DNA of 64,000 bases from Toxonevra muliebris (lineage: Eukaryota; Arthropoda; Insecta; Diptera; Pallopteridae), in contig OY829326.1 in assembly GCA_963691655.1 (NCBI GenBank), forward strand, positions 143,486,998 through 143,550,997. The letters are read 5' to 3'. The position numbers and the translations under genes are program-made. Shown here piece by piece: positions 8,340 through 58,000 of the stretch (its first letter is position 1; each line of letters begins with the position of its first letter). The notes under the pieces are model-generated. The model had not been told where the DNA came from, did not search any database, and saw only the letters and a list, made by a program, of their open reading frames with translations.

Positions 8340-9330
8340 ACTAACCAGGGTGCTTTTGCTAAGAATATCAGTGTTTTGGGATTGAAGGCGTTGTAGTATT
8401 TCTAAGTTTCAATTACTAGTGGTACCCCACAATTGAACTCCGTATGTCCAAACTAGTTTCAATATCGTTTTATAAAGTAAGAATTTGTTCTCAAGACTCA
8501 GCTCTGATTTCGGACCCAATAATCAGTACTTGCGTTTGGTTTTTATGTTAAAGTGTAGCCTTTAAATTCTCTTTCGAATTTAATCTTTTATCAAGGTGTA
8601 GTCCTAAATATTCAACACAGTTACGTTTGGAGATAGTAATTCCATTCAGATATAACGGAGGACATTCCCCTCCTCTTAATTAAAACGTGATATTTTCTGA
8701 CTTGTCTGTATTTAGCTTTATTTTGACGTTGAATGACGTCGAGCTGTTTCTGAACTAGATTTGCAGCTTCTGTAGGAGATTTATTTGACGCTAAAATGGC
8801 AGTATCGTCTAGACAATTAGCAATAGTAACACCATCAGTTTCAGGCAAGTCGCAGGTAAAAATTGAATAAAGAGCAGGACCCAGAACACTGCCTTTTGGT
8901 ACTCCGGCTTTTATTTGACATATGGCTGAAGTTTCATCATTTATTTTAACATAGAATGATCTTTCATGTAGATAGGACTTTAAGACCAAATGAAATGGAG
9001 CTGTAAGTAAATTTTTTAATTTGTATAATAGCCCTAGATGCAAAACTATGTCGAAGGCTTGCTGAATGTCCAAAAATATGGCAGAGCAATATTTTTTGCG
9101 TTCCAGAAAGTCAGTGACAATATTCACTATACGATGATATTGCTCAGGAGTGCCGTGCTTATGACAATTATTAGCAATCTACTCAAGAGTATTCTTTCGA
9201 ATACTTTCAAGGATATTGTAGGCAAACTTATAGACCTATGAGGACACTGAGTTTTCAGGTGTATTTGGTTTTGTATCATTATTATTTCAGCACATTTCCA
9301 TTGAGAAGGAAGTAGGTTAATGAGCAAGAT
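8340..9330 (-). pseudogene. Jockey-clade non-LTR retrotransposon reverse transcriptase, broken
   Basis: The minus strand carries, in order, an RT finger region (LPSQWKCAEIIMIQN, RSISLPTISLKVFERILL) in a frame reaching 9327. A second frame, 9127 to 8621, contains FLERKKYCSAIFLDIQQAFD (motif A), AGVPKGSVLGPALYSIFTCD and ANCLDDTAILASNKSPTEAA (the YADD-type catalytic box degraded to CLDD). Remnants of the region after RT (TYGVQLWGT-like, near 8430) continue to about 8340. The 5' part (ORF1 and endonuclease) is absent, as usual for 5'-truncated LINE copies. Frameshifts and a lost catalytic residue make it inactive. Confidence 0.85.
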
Positions 9331-13508: not shown

Positions 13509-14801
13509 TACAGGGTGTCAATTGCAAAGTGACGCAAGTTTAATACTCTGCAGCAAGCTTTGCCATTTACCGTTACTTTAATTTAAAAAAGCAAATTCAT
13601 TCATCATTGGCTTTGCTTTTAATTTCATTTGAATTTTTGTTATTACATTTTGAAATATCCATAAAAATGGACAAGGAAAATATTCGTCGTGAAATTATGA
13701 AATTTCATTTGGCAAATTATAGTAGCCGTTAAATTGCAAAGGCTTTAAATTTGTCAAGTCGTACGGTAAACCGAGCTATTATTCGATATAATGAAACTGG
13801 GGGTTTTGGAGATAGAGACCGGGGAAAATTTTCAACAGTTGCCACTACTGGTTTAACAGAAAAAATTCGTAAACGAATCAAGCGAAATCCAAGGCGCTCA
13901 ATGAGAAAAATCGCTAAGGAAGTGGGAGTAAACCGTGAAACAGTGCGAATCATTGCAAAATCAAAGCTTAATCTTAAGCCGTAAAAGCTCCGAAAAGCTC
14001 AAGATCTGACACAAAAACAGAAAGATTTGCGACTGCAAAGATGCAAGGCGTTGCTACGCTCCTCCGTGTTAAAAAATGTTGAAAATATCTTGTTTACAGA
14101 TGAAAAAATTTTCACGGTTGAACAACATTTCAATGCGCAAAATGACCGAATGTGGCTAACATCATCATCGCAACAAAATAGGACTGTTGGCCGAGTTCAA
14201 AAGCCAGCTTCCGTTATGGTATGGGCTGGAGTTTCCGCTAATGCCAGAACCCCTCTAATATTCGTTGAAGAGGGTGTTAAAATTTACCAGGTTGTTTATC
14301 GGAGCATTTTAAATGAACATGTTCTTCCCTAGGCCCAAGATACATTTGGAAATAAAAACTGGACTTTCCAGCAAGATTCTGCACCTTCCCACATGGCAAA
14401 ATTAACGCAAACATGGATAAAAGCCAATTTTTCTGGATTCATAACATCTCGAGAATGGCCACCATACTCCCCAGACTTGAATCCAATGGACTACTCTATT
14501 TGGAGTATTTTAGAGAGTAAGGCTTGTGCATCTCAACACCACAGTCTGGAGTCGCTGACAAATTCATTAGAGAAAGCCTGGACTGAAATTGATCAGGAAG
14601 TCCTGTGGCGAACAGTCCTACGATTTCCGGATCGATTGAAGGCATATGTGCAGACTAAAGGAGGTTATATTGAATGAGGTGGGGTTCAAATGAATGCTTA
14701 TATATTCAGCAATGTTAACACTTAATTGTACTTAATGGAAGTACGTCCTTTTGAAAATAACTGCTGAAATGTGTGCGTCACTTTACGATTGTCACCCTGT
14801 A
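13509..14801 (+). mobile_element. maT-type (DD37D) mariner-like element, copy A
   Basis: The body is 13511-14799 with TA on both sides. The TIRs are about 28 bp: CAGGGTGTCAATTGCAAAGT on the left, and the minus strand of the right end reads CAGGGTGACAATCGTAAAGT. It contains one broken transposase gene. Copy B lies inverted at 29514-30798 and is nearly the same length (1285 versus 1289 bp). Confidence 0.9.
13667..14677 (+). pseudogene. maT-like transposase with three in-frame stops (copy A)
   Basis: The reading frame is open in register from the ATG at 13667 to the TGA at 14675 (336 residues) except for stops at 13730, 13982 and 14330. No frameshift is needed. Each stop looks like a single point change, because copy B has a sense codon at the same position (Gln, Tyr and Trp). 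Paired helix-turn-helix motifs (SSRTVNRAIIRYNETGGFGD; MRKIAKEVGVNRETVRIIAK) precede the IS630/mariner catalytic domain with LFTDEKIF, FQQDSAPSH and SPDLNPMDYSIW. The second and third Asp are separated by 37 residues, defining DD37D (maT). The catalytic triad is retained, so loss of function comes from the stops. Confidence 0.9.
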
Positions 14802-25389: not shown

Positions 25390-26040
25390 CCTTTTTTATT
25401 TTCTACTACTATTCTACTATTAATTCTGCTACTATTTATACCACTATTTTCTATTAATTTTAGCCTTCTTTTTTTCTACAATTTTTTCTTATTTTCTACT
25501 ACTTTTTCAACCAATATTTTCTACTACTATTTTACTACTTTTTGTTACTACTTTTTTAATACATTTTTTCTACAATTTTTTTTATTTTGTACCGCTACTT
25601 TCTAATTTTTCTAGTACTATTTTCTATTAGTTTTAGCCTTCTTTATTTCTCCTACTTTTTCAACCAATGTTTTCTACTACTATTTTACTACTTTTTTCTA
25701 CTACTTTTTAAATACATTTTTTCTAGAATTTTTTTTCATTTTGTACCACTACTTTCTACTATTTTTTTACTACTATTTTTACTACTTTTTTACCATTTTT
25801 TCTACTACTATTTGTTATTATTATTTCTACCACTCTTTCTACTTAATTATTACTATTTTGTACTACAACGTTTAACTATTTTTCTACTACTTTTTTTCCT
25901 ACTTTTTTATTACTTTTTTACAACAATTTTTAATATTATTTTCTATTCTTTTCTCTACTATCTTTTCTACTACTATTTTCTTCAACTTTTTTACTGCTAT
26001 TTTCTGCTACTTTTTCAATTCTTTTTTCTGCTATTATTTC
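25390..26040 (+). repeat. T-rich low-complexity tandem array (CTACTATTTT type)
   Basis: Long run of degenerate units such as TTTTTCTACTACTATTTTAC with almost no G on the plus strand. The open frame across it (25587-26111), rich in Phe, Leu and Tyr, is a by-product of the repeat. Confidence 0.85.
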
Positions 26041-27121
26041 TAGCTATGTCAAAATCCGATAGGTGGCACTCTAACAACTTCTATAATAAATTCTATTTTT
26101 ATAATAATTAGCAAATGGGTCCATATTTTTATATAGTTTTTGGAATTAAATATAATTTCTAGAACGGTCTTTGATATTCTTCTGCAAATTAAATACTTTT
26201 AAAAATCGCAATTTTGATGTCTCATTTTTTAACCAAGAATTTTTACCAAATGCAATGTACGTCCTTTAAGTTTGAATTGTCATTACCAATGTTCAATTTT
26301 AAGCACTAAGAAACTTCATTCTTCTTCATTGAAATAAACTTCAATTTTCCCGCTTCTTCGTCAACGTCTGACGGGTCAGGTAGTTTCTATATAATTTTAG
26401 AGTACTGATCTTAAAATAATTAAAATATGTTATAAGAGCTTTTATATACTTGATACCTTCACATTTCAATACCTAAAAAATACTCACAAAGTAGGCAAAG
26501 TTATTTTTGAGAGAGCATAAAAAGAATGCTCACTGAAATTGTCAATTTAAACTAGTGGTACTCTAGAAGTAAAGTTGTAACGGATGTACTTATACCGAAA
26601 CCGAAAGAAAATTATAAAAATATCTTTTTCTGAAAGCAGAACCGAAAACGAATAATTTTAATATGCATGAAAATAATGCAGTGTAACATTCATTTGAAGG
26701 TCATTTGGAGGTGAAGAATTCTAATTTAATATAAACTACTAAACTAACGTAGTAAAATCCTTTTGAAAGGTGAATGATCCTAGTCTCATTGAGTATTTCT
26801 CATTTCATTCTTCAGGATAATTGTAGCTAAGGCATAGCTAAATAACTTTTATCAAGAAATCAATGTAAAAAAAAAAAAAAATAAAAAAATAAGTTTAAGT
26901 TATCTTATTAAAGATAATGTCCAATGAAATTATATTTTCACTACTTTTTCGCAAGCTCTTGCCAATAACATGTGAATAATGAATTTTGACCGCGAAGCTG
27001 TCAATGTTTATCTACACATTGTTCTAGATCTTTTCAATTATGGTTTTAAATGGTAATTTAGAAAGTTACCACCACCATGGAAAATATTTGTAGAGAACTC
27101 ATTTCATACATGTGTGATATG
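26041..27121. other. Intergenic, no recognised feature
   Basis: AT-rich, with a poly-A run near 26867-26890. No coding or repeat signal. Confidence 0.4.
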
Positions 27122-29511: not shown

Positions 29512-30800
29512 TACAGGGTGACAATCGTAAAGTGACGCACACATTTCAGCAGTTATTTTCAAAAGGACGTACTTCCAGTAAGTACAATTAAGTGTTAACA
29601 TTGCGGAATATATAAGCATTCATTTGAACCCCACCTCATTCAATATAACCTCCTTTAGCCTGCACACATGCCTTCAATCGATCCGGAAATCGTAGGACTG
29701 TTCGCCGCAGGACTTCCTGATCAATTTCAGTCCAGGCTTTCTCTAATGAATTTGTCAGCGACTCCAGACTGTGGTGTTGAGATGCACAAGCCTTACTCTC
29801 TAAAATACTCCAAATAGAGTAATCCATTGGATTCAAGTCTGGGGAGTATGGTGGCCATTCTTGAGATGTTATGAATCCAGAAAAATTGTCTTTTATCCAT
29901 GTTTGCGTTAATTTTGCCATGTGGAAAGGTGCAGAATCTTGCTGGAAAGTCCAGTTTTTATTCAAATGTATCTTGGGCCCAGGGAAGAACATGTTCATTT
30001 AAAATGCTCCGATAAACAACCTGGTCAATTTTAACACCTTCTTCAACGAATATTAGAGGGGTTCTGGCATTAGCGGAAACTCCAGCCCATACCATAACGG
30101 AAGCTGGCTTTTGAACTCGGCCAACAGTCCTATTTTGTTGCGATGATGATGTTAGCCACATTCGGTCATTTTGCGCATTGAAATGTTGTTCAACCGTGAA
30201 AATTTTTTCATCTGTAAACAAGATATTTTCAACATTTTTTAACACGGAGGAGCGTAGCAACGCCTTGCATCTTTGCAGTCGCCAAACCTTTCTTTTTGTG
30301 TCAGATCTTGAGCTTTTCGGAGCTTGTACGGCTTAAGATTAAGCTTTGATTTTGCAATGATTCGCACTGTTTCACGGTTTACTCCCACTTCCTTAGCGAT
30401 TTTTCTCATTGAGCGCCTTGGATTTCGCTTGATTCGTTTACGAATTTTTTCTGTTAAACCATTAGTGGCAACTGTTGAAAATTTTCCCCGGTCTCTATCT
30501 CCAAAACCCCCAGTTTCATTATATCGAATAATAGCTCGGTCTACCGTACGACTTGACAAATTTAAAGCCTTTGCAATTTGACGGCTACTATAATTTGCCA
30601 AATGAAATTTCATAATTTCACGACGAATATTTTCCTTGTCCATTTTTATGGAAATTTCAAAATGTAATAACAAAAATTCAAATGAAATTAAAAGCAAAGC
30701 CAATGATGAATGAATTTGCTTTTTAAATTAAAGTAACGGTAAATGGCAAAGCTTGCTGCAGAGTATTAAACTTGCGTCACTTTACAATTGTCACCCTGTA
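29512..30800 (-). mobile_element. maT-type (DD37D) mariner-like element, copy B
   Basis: The body is 29514-30798 with TA duplications. The TIRs are CAGGGTGACAATCGTAAAGT on the left and the inverse of CAGGGTGACAATTGTAAAGT on the right. It is inverted relative to copy A at 13511-14799. Confidence 0.9.
29636..30643 (-). pseudogene. maT-like transposase with two frameshifts (copy B)
   Basis: The ATG at 30643 starts MDKENIRREIMKFHLANYSS. The frame runs through both helix-turn-helix motifs, then shifts near 30290 (net loss of one base versus copy A). It resumes with LFTDEKIF through VLPWAQDTFE and shifts again near 29968 (two bases missing versus copy A). It finishes NWTFQQDSAPFH to CVQAKGGYIE. 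The three positions that are stops in copy A are sense here. The length is 1008 bases against 1011 in copy A, matching the two deletions. The DD37D triad residues are all present. Confidence 0.9.
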
Positions 30801-37470: not shown

Positions 37471-37477
37471 TATAAAT
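37471..37477 (+). promoter_or_regulatory. TATA box of the fibrinogen-related gene
   Basis: TATAAAT at 37471, 62 bases upstream of the start codon at 37533. No clean TCAGT initiator is seen about 30 bases downstream, so the exact transcription start is unclear. Confidence 0.5.
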
Positions 37478-37532
37478 ACGAGATAATTTCAAATAAGGTT
37501 TAAAGGCTTTTAAACTTAGCATTTGAGTTATA

Positions 37533-40500
37533 ATGGAGTATACAAAATTTCTTTTGGCTATACAAATATGCTGCCATCTTATCAGCGCAATCAACACAAA
37601 AATAATAGGAACTAACACGGTAAATTTTCAGCGCAATATTTTTTTAATTTTTTTAGTAACAGAAATTTTCTACATAGACATATGTAGGGTATGTATAATA
37701 TTCCAAACAATTTTACCAAAGAATCTAAGTGGAAACAATACAAAAAAACAACAACAATTAAAAAAACAACAGGGAAAACTCAGTACAAATACATGAATTG
37801 GAGGACGGCACTTATGAAAAACTGAAGCGGTGCAAAAAACAATTGGATAAATTAATTCATAAAGATTATAAAAATAAATTGGAAGCTTGCGAATCACGAG
37901 CAAATTCTGCTGAAACAGCCAATAAAATGTTAGTAGTAAATTACAATATTTCTTTACAGATTAAAAAAACCAAAAAAAAAAAAAAATTGTAACTTTCAGA
38001 TTAGAGGAATTAATGCGTAAGATGGACGAAAAATATAAAGCTGAGATCAAAACGTGTGTAGGAAATTATAGGATTTCTTTCGAGGTTCACCAAACTAATA
38101 TAAAATAATAACAACAAATTTCAGATTAGAAGAAAAACTGCATGAGAGCGAAAATAGCCATACAGCTTGCGAAATACGATTAACTTCTGCCGAAGAAGCC
38201 AGCAAAAAGTATGTAGCAAATTAAAGCATTTCTTTACAGATCCACCAAAGAAACTAATCAACCCCAAAAAAAAAAAAAACTTTCAGATTCGAAAAAACAT
38301 TACTGGAGAAAGACGAAAAACTTGAAGCTTCCGAATTACGAACTAATCTTGCAGAAACTACCAACAAACAGTATGTTGTAAATTATAAGATTTCTTTCGA
38401 GATTCACCAAACTAATCTAAAATAATAACAACCAATTTTAGATTAGAAGAAAAATTACGTGAGAGCGAAAATAGCCATACAGCTTGCGAAATACGATTAA
38501 CTTCTGCCGAAAAAGCCAGCAAAAAGTATGTATCAAATTAAAGCACTTCTTTACAAATCCACCAAAGAAACTAATCAACACAAAAAAAAACTTTTAGATT
38601 AGAAAAAACAATAGTGGAGAAAGGCGAAGAACTTAAAGCTTGCGAATTACGGTCTAATCTTGCAGAAACTGCCAACAAACAGTATGTTGTAAATTATAAG
38701 ATTTCTTTCGAGATTCACCAAACTAATCTAAAATAATAACAATAAATTTTAGATTAGAAGAATCATTACACGAGAGCGAGAATAAATACACAGCTTGCGA
38801 AGTACGATTTACTTCTGCTGAAGAAGCCAGCAAAAAGTATGTAGCAAATTAAGGCATTTCTTTACAGATCCGCCAAAGAAACTAATTAACACAAAAAAAA
38901 AACTTTCAGATTAGAAAAAACATTACTGGAGAAAGACGAAAAACTTGAAGCTTCCGAATTACGATCTAATCTTGCAGAAACTGCCAACAAAAAGTATGTT
39001 GCAAATTATAGGATTTTTTCGAGATTCACCAAATAAATCGAAAATAATAACAACAAATTTCAGATTAGAAGAATCATTACACGAGAGCGAGAATAAATAC
39101 TCAGCTTGCGAAGTACGATTTACTTCTGCCGAAGAAGCCAGCAAAAAGTATGTAGCAAATTAAGGCATTTCTTTACAGATCCACCAAAGAAACTAATTAA
39201 CACAAAAAAAAAACTTTTAGATTAGAAAAAACCATACTGGAGAAAGGTGAAGAACTTAAAACTTGCGAATTACGATCTAATCTTGCAGAAACTGCCAACA
39301 AACAGTATGTTGTAAATTATAGGATTTCTTTCGAAATTCACAAAATTAATCTAAAATAATAACAACAAATTTTAGATTAGAAAAATCGTTACACGAGAGC
39401 GAGAATAAATACACAACTTGTGAAGTACAATTTACTTCTGCCGAAAAAGCCAGCAAAGAGTATGTAGCAAATTAAAATATTTCTTTACAGATCCACCAAA
39501 CAAAAAAAAAACTTTCAGATTAGAAAAAACTTTACTGGAGAAGGAAGAAAAGCTTGGAGCTTGCGAATTACGATCCAATCTTGCAGAAACTGGCAGCAAA
39601 CAGTATGTTTTAAATTATAGGATTTCTTTCGAGATTGACTAAATTAAACTAAAATAATAACAACCAATTTTAGATTAGAAGAATCATTACACGAGAGCGA
39701 GAATAAATACACAGCTTGCGAAGTACGATTTACTTCTGCCGAAGAAGCTAGCAAAAAGTATGTAGCAAATTAAAGCATTTCTTTACAGATTTATCACAGA
39801 AACTAATCAACACAAAAAAAAAAACTTTCAGGTTAGAAACAACATTAGTGGAGAAAGGCGAAGAACTTAAAGCTTGCGATTTACGGTCTAATCTTGCAGA
39901 AACTGCCAACAAACAGTATGTTGTAAATTATAGGATTTCTTTTGAGATTCACCAAATTAATCTAAAATAATTACAACAAATTTCAGATTAGAAGAATCGT
40001 TACACAAGAACGAGAATAAATACACAGCTTGCGAAGTACGATTTACTTCTGCCGAAGAAGCCAGCAAAAAGTATGTAGCAAATTAAAGCATTTCTTTACA
40101 GATTTATCACAGAAACTAATCAACACAAAAAAAAAAACTTTCAGGTTAGAAACAACATTAGTGGAGAAAGGCGAAGAACTTAAAGCTTGTGATTTACGGT
40201 CTAACCATGCAGAAACTGCTAACAAAAAGTATGTTGTAAATTAAAAGATTTTTTTTTCAGATTCACCATAGAAACTAATAAAGAAAAAAAAAAAATGTCA
40301 ACTTTCAGATTAGAAGAATCATTACAGGAAAGCACTGAAAAATTAAAAGTTTGCTTATCACCACCACCACCACCAACAACACCACCACCAACAACAAAAC
40401 CACCACCACCAACAACAAAACCACCACCACCAACAACACCACCACCCCCACCGAGTACTTCTCGTCCAGTCCCCGAAAAGTGTGTAGTAAATTATAGCAT

Positions 40501-41239
40501 TTCTTTTCAAATTCACCAAACTAATTTAAAATAAAAAAAAAACACTTTCAGGAGAGTTCCCTCATCTTGCGCTGAAGTATTTGCGAAAGATTACAGTGCC
40601 GTAAATGGAATTTATAAGATACAATTACATGGACATAATTACGAACCATTTAACGTATACTGTGAGCGAAAGGATAATTATCCTGCTTGGACCATTATAA
40701 TGCGCCGTCAAAACAGCCAATATGCAGACAACATGAATATCTACCAAACTTGGAATAATTACAAAAAAGGTTTTGGTGGGTTAGACGATAATTTCTTTAT
40801 TGGTTTAGATAAGATACACGCAATGACGAGGGAACGACCTCATGAGTTATTAATAACAATAATGGAGTACAACGGGAGATCTCGTACACTCGCTTATGAC
40901 CGTTTTGAAATTGGTAATGAGAATGAACGTTATTACATAAAAGTCTTAGGTAGACACAAGGGCGGTATTCCCGGCCTTCACTTAAGAAGTGGTTCGGAGT
41001 TCAGCACATTCGACCGTGATAACACTAGAAAGCATTGCACCTCAAAAACTAAGGGAGGATGGTGGTACATCTCCAACGTCTGTGATAGCAGGTTAGTATT
41101 TCATCCTTACCCGTTACAATCACCGGCACAAAAAGGTTTATAATAATAATTATTTTTCAGGACTTTAACTGGTACAGACACAAGAAACCGAAAATTTTGG
41201 AACAAATACGCTGAGATAGCAATAAGGCCAAAAATTTAG
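37533..41239 (+). CDS. Secreted fibrinogen-related protein with cassette-exon coiled coil
   Basis: Best exon model: 37533-37619, 37678-37688 (tentative 11-base exon), 37773-37928, 38000-38053, fourteen 84-base exons between 38125 and 40228, 40309-40479, 40552-41091 and 41161-41239. Total 2274 bases, 757 residues plus stop. Exon 1 encodes a signal peptide (MEYTKFLLAIQICCHLISAI). The next exons begin a Lys/Glu-rich coiled coil, which continues for 14 cassettes. A Pro/Thr-rich linker and a fibrinogen C-terminal domain follow, ending KYAEIAIRPKI. The expected product is an extracellular oligomeric lectin-like protein, as in fly fibrinogen-related proteins implicated in pattern recognition. Ligand and role are not deducible. 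Introns are 58-84 bases with GT...AG ends. All junctions after the 11-base exon are phase 2. All cassettes are open, suggesting a functional gene. The least certain part is how exon 1 is spliced to 37773. Confidence 0.88.
37773..38053 (+). CDS. Start of the coiled coil (two exons before the cassette array)
   Basis: Exon 37773-37928 encodes ENSVQIHELEDGTYEKLKRC and continues to LEACESRANSAETANK, whose last part matches a B-type cassette. Exon 38000-38053 (54 bases, 18 codons) encodes LEELMRKMDEKYKAEIKT, a shortened cassette ending at a GTGTGTAG donor. Eighteen residues is not a multiple of seven, so this exon shifts the heptad register by four (a stutter) before the regular array begins. Confidence 0.8.
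38125..40228 (+). repeat. Tandem array of 14 cassette exons, seven A/B pairs, period about 311 bp
   Basis: A-type exons start at 38125, 38442, 38753, 39064, 39376, 39674 and 39987. B-type exons start at 38287, 38598, 38910, 39221, 39519, 39832 and 40145. Each is exactly 84 bases, begins with one base completing a codon and ends with two bases of the next (phase 2-2). A consensus: LEESLHESENKYTACEVRFT then SAEEASK. B consensus: LEKTLLEKGEELKACELRSN then LAETANK. Hydrophobic or small residues fall at positions 1, 5, 12, 15, 19 and 22, a regular heptad. Cys is at position 15 in all A and five of seven B cassettes. The separating introns (59-80 bases) are also repeated, so whole exon-intron units duplicated. 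A and B introns share CACCAAA-type blocks, so A and B themselves come from one ancestor. Confidence 0.92.
40309..40479 (+). CDS. Pro/Thr-rich linker exon of the fibrinogen-related gene
   Basis: 171 bases, phase 2-2. It starts as an A-type cassette (LEESLQESTEKLKVC, with the Cys at position 15). It then turns into a CCA/ACA-rich tract encoding runs of four to five prolines alternating with Thr-Thr and Thr-Thr-Lys, ending STSRPVPEK. It would form a stiff, possibly O-glycosylated hinge between coiled coil and head. It is a simple-sequence tract, so its length may vary between alleles. Confidence 0.85.
40552..41239 (+). CDS. Fibrinogen C-terminal (FReD) domain, two exons
   Basis: Exon 40552-41091 (540 bases) starts RVPSSCAEVFAKDYSAVNGI, then FNVYC, WTIIMRR, YKKGFGGLDDNFFIGLDKIH, AYDRFEIGNENERYYIKVLG, EFSTFDRDN (calcium-loop position), KHC and GGWWYISNVC. 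The last exon, 41161-41239, adds TLTGTDTRNRKFWNKYAEIA and the stop. The two conserved Cys pairs are present. The length of about 205 residues is typical. The segment after GGWWY departs from the usual CH.SNLNG pattern (ISNVCDSRTLTG), which may alter the binding pocket. The splice between them (CAG|GTTAGT to TTTCAG|G) is phase 2. Confidence 0.93.
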
Positions 41240-54148: not shown

Positions 54149-55008
54149 TCAAGGTGGTGCACCATAAAAGCTATGCTCCTTAATTGTTGTCTCCTTTGTT
54201 GCGGCGATTTTCTTAAATTTAACCACTACACGCATACGTAACAAAATCTCCTCATGCAGCATATTGACACACATCGATGTAAGTGTGAGCCCACTCAGAA
54301 TGTACGCTGCACAGAACCATACTACAAATGTCGATGTCGTTGAAGACGATCTCGGATTCGTGCCAGGAAGTAGGTCACAAAATCCAATCGTCGTAAGGCT
54401 CATAAAACAAAAGTAAATACCATCGAATAGCGTCCATTGCTCAAGTAACGATATGACAACTGAGCCAACACCAACATATAAGAAAAGCAGCAGTAAACAA
54501 AACCCAACTGGCACCACCAGGGACCAACGTAAGGTGGAGGCATGCGTGTGTGTATGCTGCAGCTCACTCATTGATGATGACATATTTAGAGTGTCAAATG
54601 ATGTGCTGCCGCCAAGCATGTGCGTTGTTGATGCAGCTTCCGCATTAATATCCGCTGCTGTCGATGACGTCGGCAGTGCTGCCGGTGGGCGTACATAACA
54701 ATATGGTAAATGTTGTTGCTGCTGCTGCTGTTGTTGCTGTTGCTGATGACGACGATGCAACTGTTTCAATTTCAGATTACACTTCTTATTGCTGTCCGAT
54801 GCTTGCTGATGTTGCTTGCTAAAGCCACCACCACAGTATGATTGCCGTCTGCAACAACAGAGTGCACGCGTACACAGTGCCGTGGCTAACTTGGCCAATA
54901 TGCTGCCTATGCTAGAGAGATAAATGAGAGTGAGCGGAATGCCCAGTGTTGCATAGGCAATGGTCACCATACGGCCGAGTATTGTGCGCGGAGTAATTGT
55001 GCCATATC
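54149..55008 (-). CDS. K2P terminal exon: filter 1 end, TM2, TM3, pore 2, TM4
   Basis: Starts YGTITPRTILGRMV. TM2 is TIAYATLGIPLTLIYLSSIG. The cytoplasmic loop has a CCCRR cluster, an 11-residue Gln run coded by CAG/CAA mixes (around 54716-54750), and Ser/Thr/Ala-rich sequence. TM3 is VPVGFCLLLLFLYVGVGSVV, pore 2 is FDGIYFCFMSLTTIGFCDLL and TM4 is AAYILSGLTLTSMCVNMLHE. A basic segment (RMRVVVKFKK) and a 12-residue tail follow before TGA. Confidence 0.92.
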
Positions 55009-58000
55009 CTGTGCCGAAAAACGATAGTAAAATTGTTCTCAAAATAATCAAACATACAAAAAAAGAATTTGGGTCAAGAAAATGTGGAACATCCAAAAAA
55101 TTAAAGTAGAGAAACACTCACCAACAGTTGTAATCACCGTTAGCGAATAAAGAAATGCTGTTGCGAAATTCCATTCAAAATGTTGTTGCCGACGTATGTG
55201 GCGTGAATGTTTTAGTTGCCAGAAATGTGGACGTCCTTGCTGTTGATGCTGTTGTTGATATTGATTTGAATGTTTTTGTTGCTGTTGAAACTGTTCATTG
55301 AAATGTTTCGTATTTTGGCTCATCACATTTAAGCTCTGCAGTAATGTATTCCGCCTTCTTGCAACAGCAGCTGTTGTTTTTTGTTGTGCATCATTTGTCG
55401 TTGATAGCGTTAAATCCATGATAAGACGTTTAACTAATTGATCCTGAAATCTGGAAATTTCTAAAGAAGCCAATCTAAAGAGAAAGCGAAAAAGTATTTA
55501 AGAAAATAATTAAATTTAATTAATTGGATTGATTACTTAGTTTCTGGTTATATAGTATGCAACAAATTGGGTCCGCTTACAATTATATGACAAGCAGAAA
55601 TAGTGAATGATTTACTGTCCTAGGGCAGAAGTGCGAATATATATATATTTATATATATATATATCCGCATTTCCACACGGAGGCTTTACAGTCCATTGTA
55701 ATTGCCCGCAGGTAATTGCCAGGAGGAAGCATAACTCTAACCACGATTTTTGTCAACAGTCTAGGTAGTGTCCCTATTGAACCACTTGGTTCTGGGATAT
55801 TTCCAATGACATTACCGCTGTTAGACTATTGAAGAAGCGCAACTCCAAACATTGGAGTCTGTTCAAGCCCATTCTTTTCTTTAACTTGTTAAGGAATCGT
55901 TTAAAAAGTTCACAACCCGAAAGAACAAGAAAAAACGAACAGCGTGAAACAGAAAATTGTTGATACCGCTATAATAATATTTTAACCATTAAATTTTCAA
56001 GCACTCATAAGAGAAAAGAAAAGTATGGACTTTAAGTCGATATCTTGAAAAGTTTTGGAGATATGAATTTTATTTTTGATATGTTATCAAAACTCTGAAA
56101 TACTTCATCTTATCTAAAAGGGTAAGCGATCATACCTGGAACTATATTGAAGTGAAGAGTGTAGTAAAAAGAGAGGAAATTACAGCTACAGCATTCTATA
56201 TCAATCTCATAAACGGGTAGAAAATTGCGTAGAAAAGAGACAGCCTAGTCGTAAAAGAAAAAGAAGGAACAACGATCAACAATAACGATCCTACAACAAC
56301 GGAGTAGTCTACGACATCAGCGTCCCTAAACTTTTAATTCATCGATTTGCTTTTGGTCTGTCAAATACTCAGACACACAGTTCAAATTCGATGATGTGAC
56401 CGTCGAACCAGTAAAAAAGACTAAAAATCAATACCAACTAAAACAAGTATATGAAGTTAAAGGCAAACAACATCGACTATTCTCTGTATGTTCAGCCGAA
56501 GCCAAGTCCGTAGACTGATTCACTTACTTGGAAAGTATAATCTCAGGAAAGTGCAAATCAGGTTGTTAGAGCAATAATTGGAAAAGCAAACGGTCTATTT
56601 TTACAACTGCTGAACACAAGGTGCTCATTTTTAATAAGCGGCTGGGACGACTTGAAAGTCAGGCACTGCGACCTAAAAGATTTTTTGTACCAAAGCCCCA
56701 AAATTAAGGAAAAAAATTATCTGCTATTCTAGTGAATGCTAGAACATCTCATGTGGAAGAGGTTTTGATTTCGTTTGTTGATAGAAACGGTTTGCTAAAA
56801 ATACCCCTTCTTTGCCAAGCTAAGGCTGGACATTCACACAGAATGCGAGATGTCTCATTTGACCACAACGTGGCCAGATAGAAAGCCTACTAGCAATCTG
56901 AGATCCGCTTTCTTTAAGTTCAGGTATTTGGTGAGAGCTAGAGAGAGGAACAAGTTTCTTTGCCTAACTAAAGCCTGGAATGGAATACGCCCACGTCTCT
57001 ATAATCGATTTGGAACGAGTCCAGCCGATTTCACCGAATGTGTGTAGAGCTGCTGAGCCCTGCTTAGGAAGTTTATCAGCAGCTGCATTATAATGTCTAT
57101 AATGTTACAGTGACCTGACACGGTGCAAATTGGAGAATTGGGAATTTTACTTAGAATGCTCAAATGACCGATGGTATCTCTTAGTAAACTACAATTGGCG
57201 CTGCCTTCCTTTTGAAGATGTACAGTGGTGCAAACGTAGGAGTGGGACAGGTTGGTTTAGCAAAATGGGGCCCTATACGCCATAACTTGTTAAATGGGAC
57301 GGAGGATTATGTGGCGATATTGGAAAGCTAAGATAGGTTTAAAATTAGTGGCCCAAATATTGATTTGTATCAGGAAAGAAGAAGCACATTTGGCTGGCAT
57401 TGCTAACCATTTTAAGAATTTCCCGAAATTTCTGAGTCATTCTTTAGTGTTGGTCCAATGCATAATAAGAAAGCGGGCATAAAATTGGTTCATTATGATT
57501 TCACTATACGTGGCACCTTTCACAATTTTACTCTCTTGTGTTCATCTTTAAGCACTCTGTACTCTCGATGAACTTTCTTAAGCCTGTTGGCAAAATCTGT
57601 GCTAGTTCTACGAAAAGCCTGTCATTTAAGCATAATATAACTGTTCTTGTTGTACTTGGAATTCTTAAAAAATCAAGTAAATACGTAAAAAAGCAACAGA
57701 TTCGGCAGAACTTAAAATTGCGGCAAATTTCTAAAATAATAGATAATAGATAGAATTAGATAGGGAACGGGGCATGAAAAATTTTGGGGCACGTAAATTT
57801 GTCGCCATATTTTTGACTTTAGCAGAGTTTGATCACTTGAAATACATAAATATGACTTGCAGCTGATTTATTTTATTTTAATTTTTTGTCATCCCGAAGT
57901 TTTCATAAACATTCAAAATTTTTCATTTTACTGTATCCCACCATTTTTGAGAATATGAAAACCACACGTTTTTGAAAAAAAAGCTTAAAATTTTCATCTC

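What the first reader, a model, noticed from the sequence alone, without database searches (positions are those of the whole stretch)
38125..40228. Fourteen phase-2 mini-exons form a modular, frame-neutral coiled-coil array in a fibrinogen-related gene
Seven tandem A/B pairs of exactly 84-base exons, each with its own short intron, all in the same phase and all open. Any number can be added, lost or skipped without a frameshift. Exon-intron units are highly similar, so the array is likely recent and unstable, and transcripts may contain different cassette numbers. I know of no described fly fibrinogen-related gene with this layout, but I could not search.
Basis: partly seen in the sequence, partly recalled or inferred. 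Interest (0 to 1): 0.92.

Follow-up and report, generated by a model that had tools for sequence, protein, structure and literature searches.

The report
Lectin gene with repeat-exon stalk
A fly gene for a probable secreted lectin builds its stalk from 14 similar mini-exons that can be gained or lost without breaking the protein; a sister gene nearby has 12, while the binding heads of this gene cluster change unusually fast, so stalk length and head appear to evolve as separate parts.

Summary
Fourteen 84-nt exons (38125-40228), seven A/B pairs, all phase 2 and open, sit in a predicted 20-exon, 774-aa fibrinogen-related (FREP) gene. Each module is 28 residues (four heptads), so a gain or loss keeps frame and heptad register. 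New here: a second such gene, inverted and about 40 kb away, has 12 modules; of the four other FREP genes found in this cluster three have no module and one has a single 84-nt exon of this type. Stalk exons are under purifying selection (pN/pS 0.35) with no indel in 12 matched exon pairs. The longest identical stretch shared by the two arrays (217 nt) is out of register, a sign of unequal exchange or conversion. The heads do the opposite: across six genes omega is 1.35 and M2a beats M1a by 25.8 (0 of 60 null simulations reach it). Best reading: a secreted lectin with a helical stalk whose length changes at the DNA level, bearing a diversifying head. Transcript-level cassette variation is untested; the coiled coil is supported for A modules, not for B. 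New variant of a known kind.

The parts
37471..37478 (+). TATAAATA box, probable core promoter
   Evidence: read in the sequence; the same TATAAATACGAGA.AATTTC context is visible in all five cluster paralogs
37533..37692 (+). exon 1: start codon and signal-peptide-like N terminus (MEYTKFLLAIQICCHLISA...); 3' end inferred
   Evidence: donor GTATAA is phase-compatible in window, L013, L012, L009 and L010; weak donor score with a hand-made matrix (-3.3); signal peptide judged by eye, no predictor run
37784..37928 (+). exon 2, helical stalk start
   Evidence: same 145-nt exon in the 12-module paralog
38000..38053 (+). exon 3, 54 nt (18 aa), short stalk exon
   Evidence: also in L013 and L012
38125..38208 (+). 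module A1
38287..38370 (+). module B1
38442..38525 (+). module A2
38598..38681 (+). module B2
38753..38836 (+). module A3
38910..38993 (+). module B3
39064..39147 (+). module A4
39221..39304 (+). module B4
39376..39459 (+). module A5
39519..39602 (+). module B5
39674..39757 (+). module A6
39832..39915 (+). module B6: 5' part like B7, 3' part identical to paralog B2
39987..40070 (+). module A7, 100% identical to paralog A3
40145..40228 (+). module B7, 100% identical to paralog B6
39881..40097 (+). 217-nt stretch (B6 to the intron after A7) identical, out of register, to B2 to the intron after A3 of the paralog
   Evidence: longest exact match between the two arrays
40309..40479 (+). exon 18: half module followed by a Pro/Thr-rich hinge (27 nt shorter in the paralog)
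40552..41091 (+). exon 19: fibrinogen C-terminal (FBG) domain, main part
   Evidence: Pfam PF00147, PDB relatives tenascin, angiopoietin, ficolin, tachylectin-5A
41161..41239 (+). exon 20: short end of the FBG domain and stop codon

Best explanation
A secreted fibrinogen-related lectin-like protein with three parts: a signal peptide, a long helical stalk made of 28-residue modules (one per 84-nt phase-2 exon), and a FBG head on a Pro/Thr hinge. The stalk grew by duplication of an exon-plus-intron unit of the kind that lies just upstream of the head exon, then by AB-pair steps, and keeps changing length at the DNA level through unequal exchange or conversion with an inverted sister array. Because every unit is phase 2-2 and 28 residues (four heptads), such changes keep frame and register and alter only length (about 4 nm per module if fully helical; the rise of 0.1485 nm per residue is recalled). 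Shown: anatomy, the paralog with 12 modules, purifying selection on the stalk, diversifying selection on the heads, the out-of-register tract. Inferred: expression, splicing, secretion, oligomerisation, disulfides through the Cys at position 15, binding of variable (perhaps microbial) ligands.
For: 14 exons of 84 nt, phase 2, open, with constant splice sites; predicted 774-aa and 708-aa proteins, each with only the final stop. Paralog with 12 modules. In 12 matched unit pairs: 0 gaps in exons, 7 in introns; stalk pN/pS 0.35. 18 of 19 introns hold an in-frame stop if retained. Cys at position 15 in 22 of 26 modules, Ser in 4. Heads: M0 omega 1.35, M2a over M1a 25.8, 39% of sites at omega 3.2; LRT 9.3 to 30.2 in the seven drop-out runs; 0 of 60 null simulations reach 25.8. 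5' flank and stalk 96-98% identical between the two genes, head exon 77-79%. 217-nt out-of-register identity.
Against: No RNA or protein evidence. The exon 1-2 junction needs a weak donor. Coiled-coil periodicity fails for B modules (830 of 5000) and period 4.0 has more power than 3.5 over all modules; stalk finds no PDB sequence at E 0.01. A-to-B pN/pS is 1.17. Single pairwise dN/dS tests are mostly not significant (1 of 4 at p 0.02, uncorrected), and conversion can bias site models. No ligand site was tested.
Confidence: 0.66

Rival explanations
1. The modules are cassette exons: alternative splicing yields stalks of many lengths from one gene, as proposed for schistosome micro-exon genes and SmPoMuc.
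For: All modules are symmetric; random subsets keep the frame in 1000 of 1000 trials. Splice sites are near-identical, so skipping or mis-pairing is mechanically possible. SmPoMuc transcripts vary in repeat number (passages).
Against: Introns of 59-80 nt suggest intron definition and constitutive splicing (recalled rule). No transcript data. Length differences already exist between the two genes at DNA level.
Confidence: 0.2
2. The gene or its array is decaying or unexpressed, and the repeats are only a tandem repeat with open frames inherited from a seed exon.
For: Weak exon 1 donor. Three cluster genes seem to have lost use of a small exon next to the head: its donor G is changed in L009-L011 (read).
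Against: No stop or frameshift in 26 modules; 0 exon gaps against 7 intron gaps in matched pairs; stalk pN/pS 0.35; splice donors GTATGT in 26 of 26. Six heads open.
Confidence: 0.07
3. Copy number is an assembly artefact of a tandem repeat.
For: Introns after A6 and A7 are identical and B6/A7 repeat other units closely; reads could not be examined.
Against: Most units differ by several bases, and a separate inverted locus has the same ordered series A1,B1,A2.... At most one pair could plausibly be in doubt.
Confidence: 0.04
4. The stalk is not a coiled coil but a single charged helix or another helical spacer; the head variation reflects reproductive or other conflict and not immunity.
For: B modules fail the heptad test. 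Nothing here ties the gene to immunity.
Against: A modules pass (43 of 5000); Pfam PUMA_CC coiled-coil model matches over its cut-off (56.6 against 30.1 bits) though Tropomyosin stays below its own (34.2 against 38.6). Eight FREPs are induced by bacterial infection in house fly, none in D. melanogaster (passages).
Confidence: 0.25

Closest known systems
Insect fibrinogen-related proteins (FREPs)
   Same: C-terminal FBG domain (PF00147), clustered gene family; nearest proteins found are fly FREPs at 36-40% identity
   Different: No FREP in the searched proteins matched at full length or by its head among proteins of similar length; the stalk made of 14 equal mini-exons was not found described; FBG model matched only to position 186 of 221
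Schistosoma mansoni polymorphic mucins (SmPoMuc)
   Same: Tandem exon-plus-intron units, frame-neutral exon, different unit numbers among clustered paralogs, one gene with none (passages)
   Different: 27-bp exon in ~1-kb units coding a 9-aa mucin repeat; here 84-nt exons in ~155-nt units coding helical modules, with a FBG head; no homology claimed; transcript variation shown there, untested here
Schistosome micro-exon genes and VAL-6
   Same: Small symmetrical exons; VAL-6 joins such a stretch to a folded domain (passages)
   Different: The passages read do not describe tandem copies of one equal-length exon
Ficolins and tachylectin-5A
   Same: FBG head related in sequence (PDB 1jc9, ficolins)
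   Different: Ficolins cluster their heads through a collagen-like helix (passage); no collagen-like repeat in the predicted protein
Titin PEVK exons (recalled)
   Same: about 28-residue modules encoded by single frame-neutral exons
   Different: recalled only; one search found no paper in the library; unrelated protein

Membership tests
Fibrinogen-related protein (FREP) | C-terminal FBG domain | tested here: met
   PF00147 E 8.7e-34, 117.7 bits against cut-off 22; 68 PDB sequences at E 0.001
Fibrinogen-related protein (FREP) | secreted protein with signal peptide | not tested
   hydrophobic N terminus seen in the translation, no predictor available
Fibrinogen-related protein (FREP) | FBG calcium and ligand site | not tested
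   only eyeballed; a D-x-D motif before the Cys is present in the six aligned heads; site residues recalled, not compared with a structure
Coiled-coil protein | heptad pattern of hydrophobic residues | tested here: inconclusive
   A 43, B 830, all 130 of 5000 shuffles; Fourier test 195 of 1000
Ficolin | collagen-like stalk | tested here: not met
   no Gly-X-Y run in the predicted protein; Pfam finds no collagen domain
SmPoMuc-type tandem-exon gene (works like, not a member) | tandem frame-neutral exon units, number differing among paralogs | tested here: met
   14 and 12 units
SmPoMuc-type tandem-exon gene (works like, not a member) | transcripts with different unit numbers | not testable with these tools
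   no RNA data held
SmPoMuc-type tandem-exon gene (works like, not a member) | mucin repeat protein | tested here: not met
   helical Glu/Lys-rich modules and a FBG head

The most novel reading that the evidence does not exclude
The cluster is a two-part recognition system: a head under diversifying selection on a stalk whose length is tuned by a recombining exon array, so that individuals differ in stalk length (array copy number) and, by conversion between the two inverted arrays, stalks are homogenised and resized while heads stay distinct. Stalk length would then be a selectable trait of a lectin, set by exon copy number.
Probability: 0.3. Interest if true: 0.8.

Novelty: new variant of a known kind. 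Interest (0 to 1): 0.62.

Why it matters
Tandem frame-neutral exons are known, but here the unit also equals four heptads, so selection can act on stalk length alone. With two arrays of 14 and 12 units, an unequal-exchange footprint, a conserved stalk and fast-changing heads in one cluster, the roles of reach and of binding in a lectin can be separated and tested.

Tried and rejected
Exon 1 ending at 37619 (GTAAAT donor) was tried first and gives a frameshift into exon 2; replaced by 37692 after comparing five genes. The in-frame-stop table used that wrong phase; one search replaces it.

A four-exon super-unit (A B A B') was considered: lag 4 equals lag 2 in the window (91.3% each) and nearly so in the paralog (91.6 and 91.5), so it is not needed beyond the AB pair.

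Whether arrays are common among FREPs of this genome: self-comparison of 8 other FREP loci with about 1.5 kb flanks showed no repeated units except low-complexity DNA in L003; 5 kb upstream of three FREP genes (one the same gene as L003) showed no array, with the window and L013 as positive controls. This covers 10 of the other FREP genes only, and shallowly. The whole-genome searches with the unit DNA and an AB protein found the two arrays and the L012 gene (DNA: 11 matches) or the two arrays (protein: 27 matches); these searches score best candidates only.

Species identification by assembly size failed. Titin PEVK literature: 0 papers.

Full report
What is there. The window lies at C1:143486998-143550997 of a 491-Mb, 96-contig genome. 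A gene on the + strand runs from an ATG at 37533 to a stop at 41239. Between a 54-nt exon (38000-38053) and a hinge exon (40309-40479) lie 14 exons of exactly 84 nt with introns of 59-80 nt. The donors after them are GTATGT in 14 of 14 in the window and 26 of 26 with the paralog; the acceptors ending the introns after them are TTCAG (15) or TTTAG (11) of 26. Every module adds 28 residues. The predicted protein has 774 residues with no internal stop. 18 of 19 introns contain an in-frame stop if retained; intron 1 does not.

The start of the gene. The obvious donor at 37620 gives phase 0 while exon 2 needs phase 1. Comparing five genes of the cluster, a GTATAA donor (37693 in the window) fits in all five. 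L011 was not tested because the script anchored to another ATG. The donor scores poorly with a matrix that I wrote from the recalled consensus. This junction is the weakest part of the model.

Paralogs. A genome search with PF00147 gave 110 matched stretches (exons and pieces, not genes), of which six head exons lie at C1:143.296-143.528 Mb. I fetched the five others. One, on the opposite strand, has 12 modules in the same A/B order and encodes a predicted 708-aa protein; by its coordinates its ATG lies about 40.1 kb from that of the window gene, head to head. In the other four, the distance from ATG to the head exon is 335, 331, 345 and 664 nt (L009, L010, L011, L012), against 3022 nt in the window and 2675 nt in the 12-module gene, so they have no room for an array (coordinates). 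L012 has a 54-nt and an 84-nt exon of this type. The intron before the head exon is of the array intron type: it is one of the 16 copies of repeat family D4. I infer that an exon-plus-intron unit next to the head exon was the seed.

How the array changes. Exon+intron units are 91% alike at even lags of 2 and 4 and 76% at odd lags of 1 and 3 in the window, so the AB pair (about 311 nt) is the unit of growth. Between the two arrays I listed exact matches of 90 nt or more: five. Four (175, 164, 116, 100 nt) join corresponding units, counting the last B of each array as corresponding. The longest, 217 nt, joins window B6-intron-A7 to paralog B2-intron-A3, out of register. Exon A7 is 100% identical to paralog A3, exon A6 to A6 and exon B7 to B6, and the intron after B6 is identical to the one after paralog B2. 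So the window's extra pair is partly a copy of units from elsewhere in a sister array. Direction of transfer was not determined.

Selection. In 12 matched exon pairs there are 31 differences in 1008 nt and no gap; in the matched introns 96.5% of 854 nt and 7 gaps. Stalk: 13.0 synonymous changes per 203.0 sites, 17.0 nonsynonymous per 769.0, ratio 0.35. Within the window gene pN/pS is 0.42 among A, 0.60 among B, but 1.17 between A and B, so the two types once diverged without such constraint. The heads differ: window against L013 dN/dS 1.26, range 0.63 to 1.76 over 15 pairs; of four Fisher tests only L013-L009 reaches p 0.02, uncorrected. A maximum-likelihood site model that I coded gives M0 omega 1.35 (omega=1 is only 1.7 log units worse), M2a against M1a 25.8, with 39% of sites at omega 3.2. 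Leaving out each gene in turn the statistic is 14.1 to 30.2; leaving out both arrayed genes 9.3 (p 0.01); 60 null simulations peak at 5.4. Nineteen sites have posterior above 0.9, ten of them at head residue 134 or later. Gene conversion can inflate such tests.

Stalk and head have different histories. Between the two arrayed genes: 5' flank to -1000 96-98%, array exons 96.9%, array introns 96.5%, exon 18 95%, intron 18 94%, then head exon 77% (79% with another aligner), intron 19 87%, last exon 67% ungapped or 89% of 65 gapped positions, 3' flank 85% over 386 or 93% over 188 nt. The window's 5' flank is only 87-90% identical to the other four genes. So 5' region and stalk are younger between these two genes than the heads, as conversion of the 5' part would give, and the head exon differs more than its own intron and 3' flank.

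Is the stalk a coiled coil? 28 = 4 x 7. With position 1 as d, mean hydropathy is 1.0 at a and 1.3 at d, and -1.2 or lower elsewhere. Position 15 (d) is Cys in 22 of 26 modules and Ser in 4. Tests: a/d contrast, best of seven registers, reached by 43 of 5000 column shuffles for A, 830 for B, 130 for all; power at period 3.5 reached by 195 of 1000, and period 4.0 has more power than 3.5 over all modules. Pfam PUMA_CC matches over its cut-off, Tropomyosin below its cut-off. I read this as helical, probably coiled coil, with B modules unsure.

What is known. Nearest proteins: 8 hits, three Zeugodacus, three Bactrocera, two Drosophila, 36-40% identity (query L010). The stalked protein itself: none of 7988 scored candidates and none of 216 candidates for its head among proteins of similar length reached E 0.001. 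Paper searches for FREPs, coiled coils and tandem exons (listings of up to 20 papers each) showed no title or abstract describing such a fly gene; the library lacks most subscription journals. Passages of PMC1242226 (mosquito and Drosophila FREPs; 53 in A. gambiae; the word coiled does not occur) and of PMC12074976 were seen. The closest layout is SmPoMuc in Schistosoma: a 27-bp exon in tandem units of about 1 kb, genes with 1 to about 20 copies and one with none (passages of PMC2576457). Micro-exon genes use small symmetrical exons, and VAL-6 joins such a stretch to a folded domain (passages of PMC4350168). In house fly eight FREPs are induced by infection, and the authors saw none in D. melanogaster (passages of PMC5400391).

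Verdict. The favoured mechanism is DNA-level length change of a constitutively spliced helical stalk under a diversifying lectin head. Whether transcripts also vary is open.

Noticed in passing
window 40552-41239 and L009-L013: The six FBG heads of this cluster show positive selection (M2a over M1a 25.8) and a short C-terminal exon: Pfam matches only to profile position 186 of 221 in the window head.
   Followed up: yes
window 40359-40452: Pro/Thr hinge encoded by a CCA-rich tandem repeat, 27 nt shorter in the paralog: a second frame-neutral length polymorphism.
   Followed up: partly
L009, L010, L011 just upstream of the FBG exon: A small exon remnant (ATCAGAAAAATC...) whose splice donor G is changed to T relative to the window gene; probably skipped (read).
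   Followed up: partly
window 29636-30727 (-) and 13985-14677 (+): Two related transposase-like copies: ORF pieces in the two places share long identical protein stretches; the 30239-30727 ORF has helix-turn-helix Pfam matches.
   Followed up: partly
window 8621-9178 (-): Reverse transcriptase fragment (RVT_1, E 4.8e-12).
   Followed up: partly
window 54149-55117 (-): ORF with two Ion_trans_2 stretches (E 1.6e-20), probably an exon of a two-pore potassium channel with a poly-Gln run.
   Followed up: partly
window 25399-26042: Long degenerate TTTCTACTACT repeat with nested periods of 12, 73 and 153 that keeps a 183-aa frame open by composition.
   Followed up: no
G000, mostly C1 and C2: 110 FBG-domain stretches in the genome, several in dense clusters such as C1:8.76-8.79 Mb and C2:33.3-33.6 Mb: a large FREP family.
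   Followed up: partly
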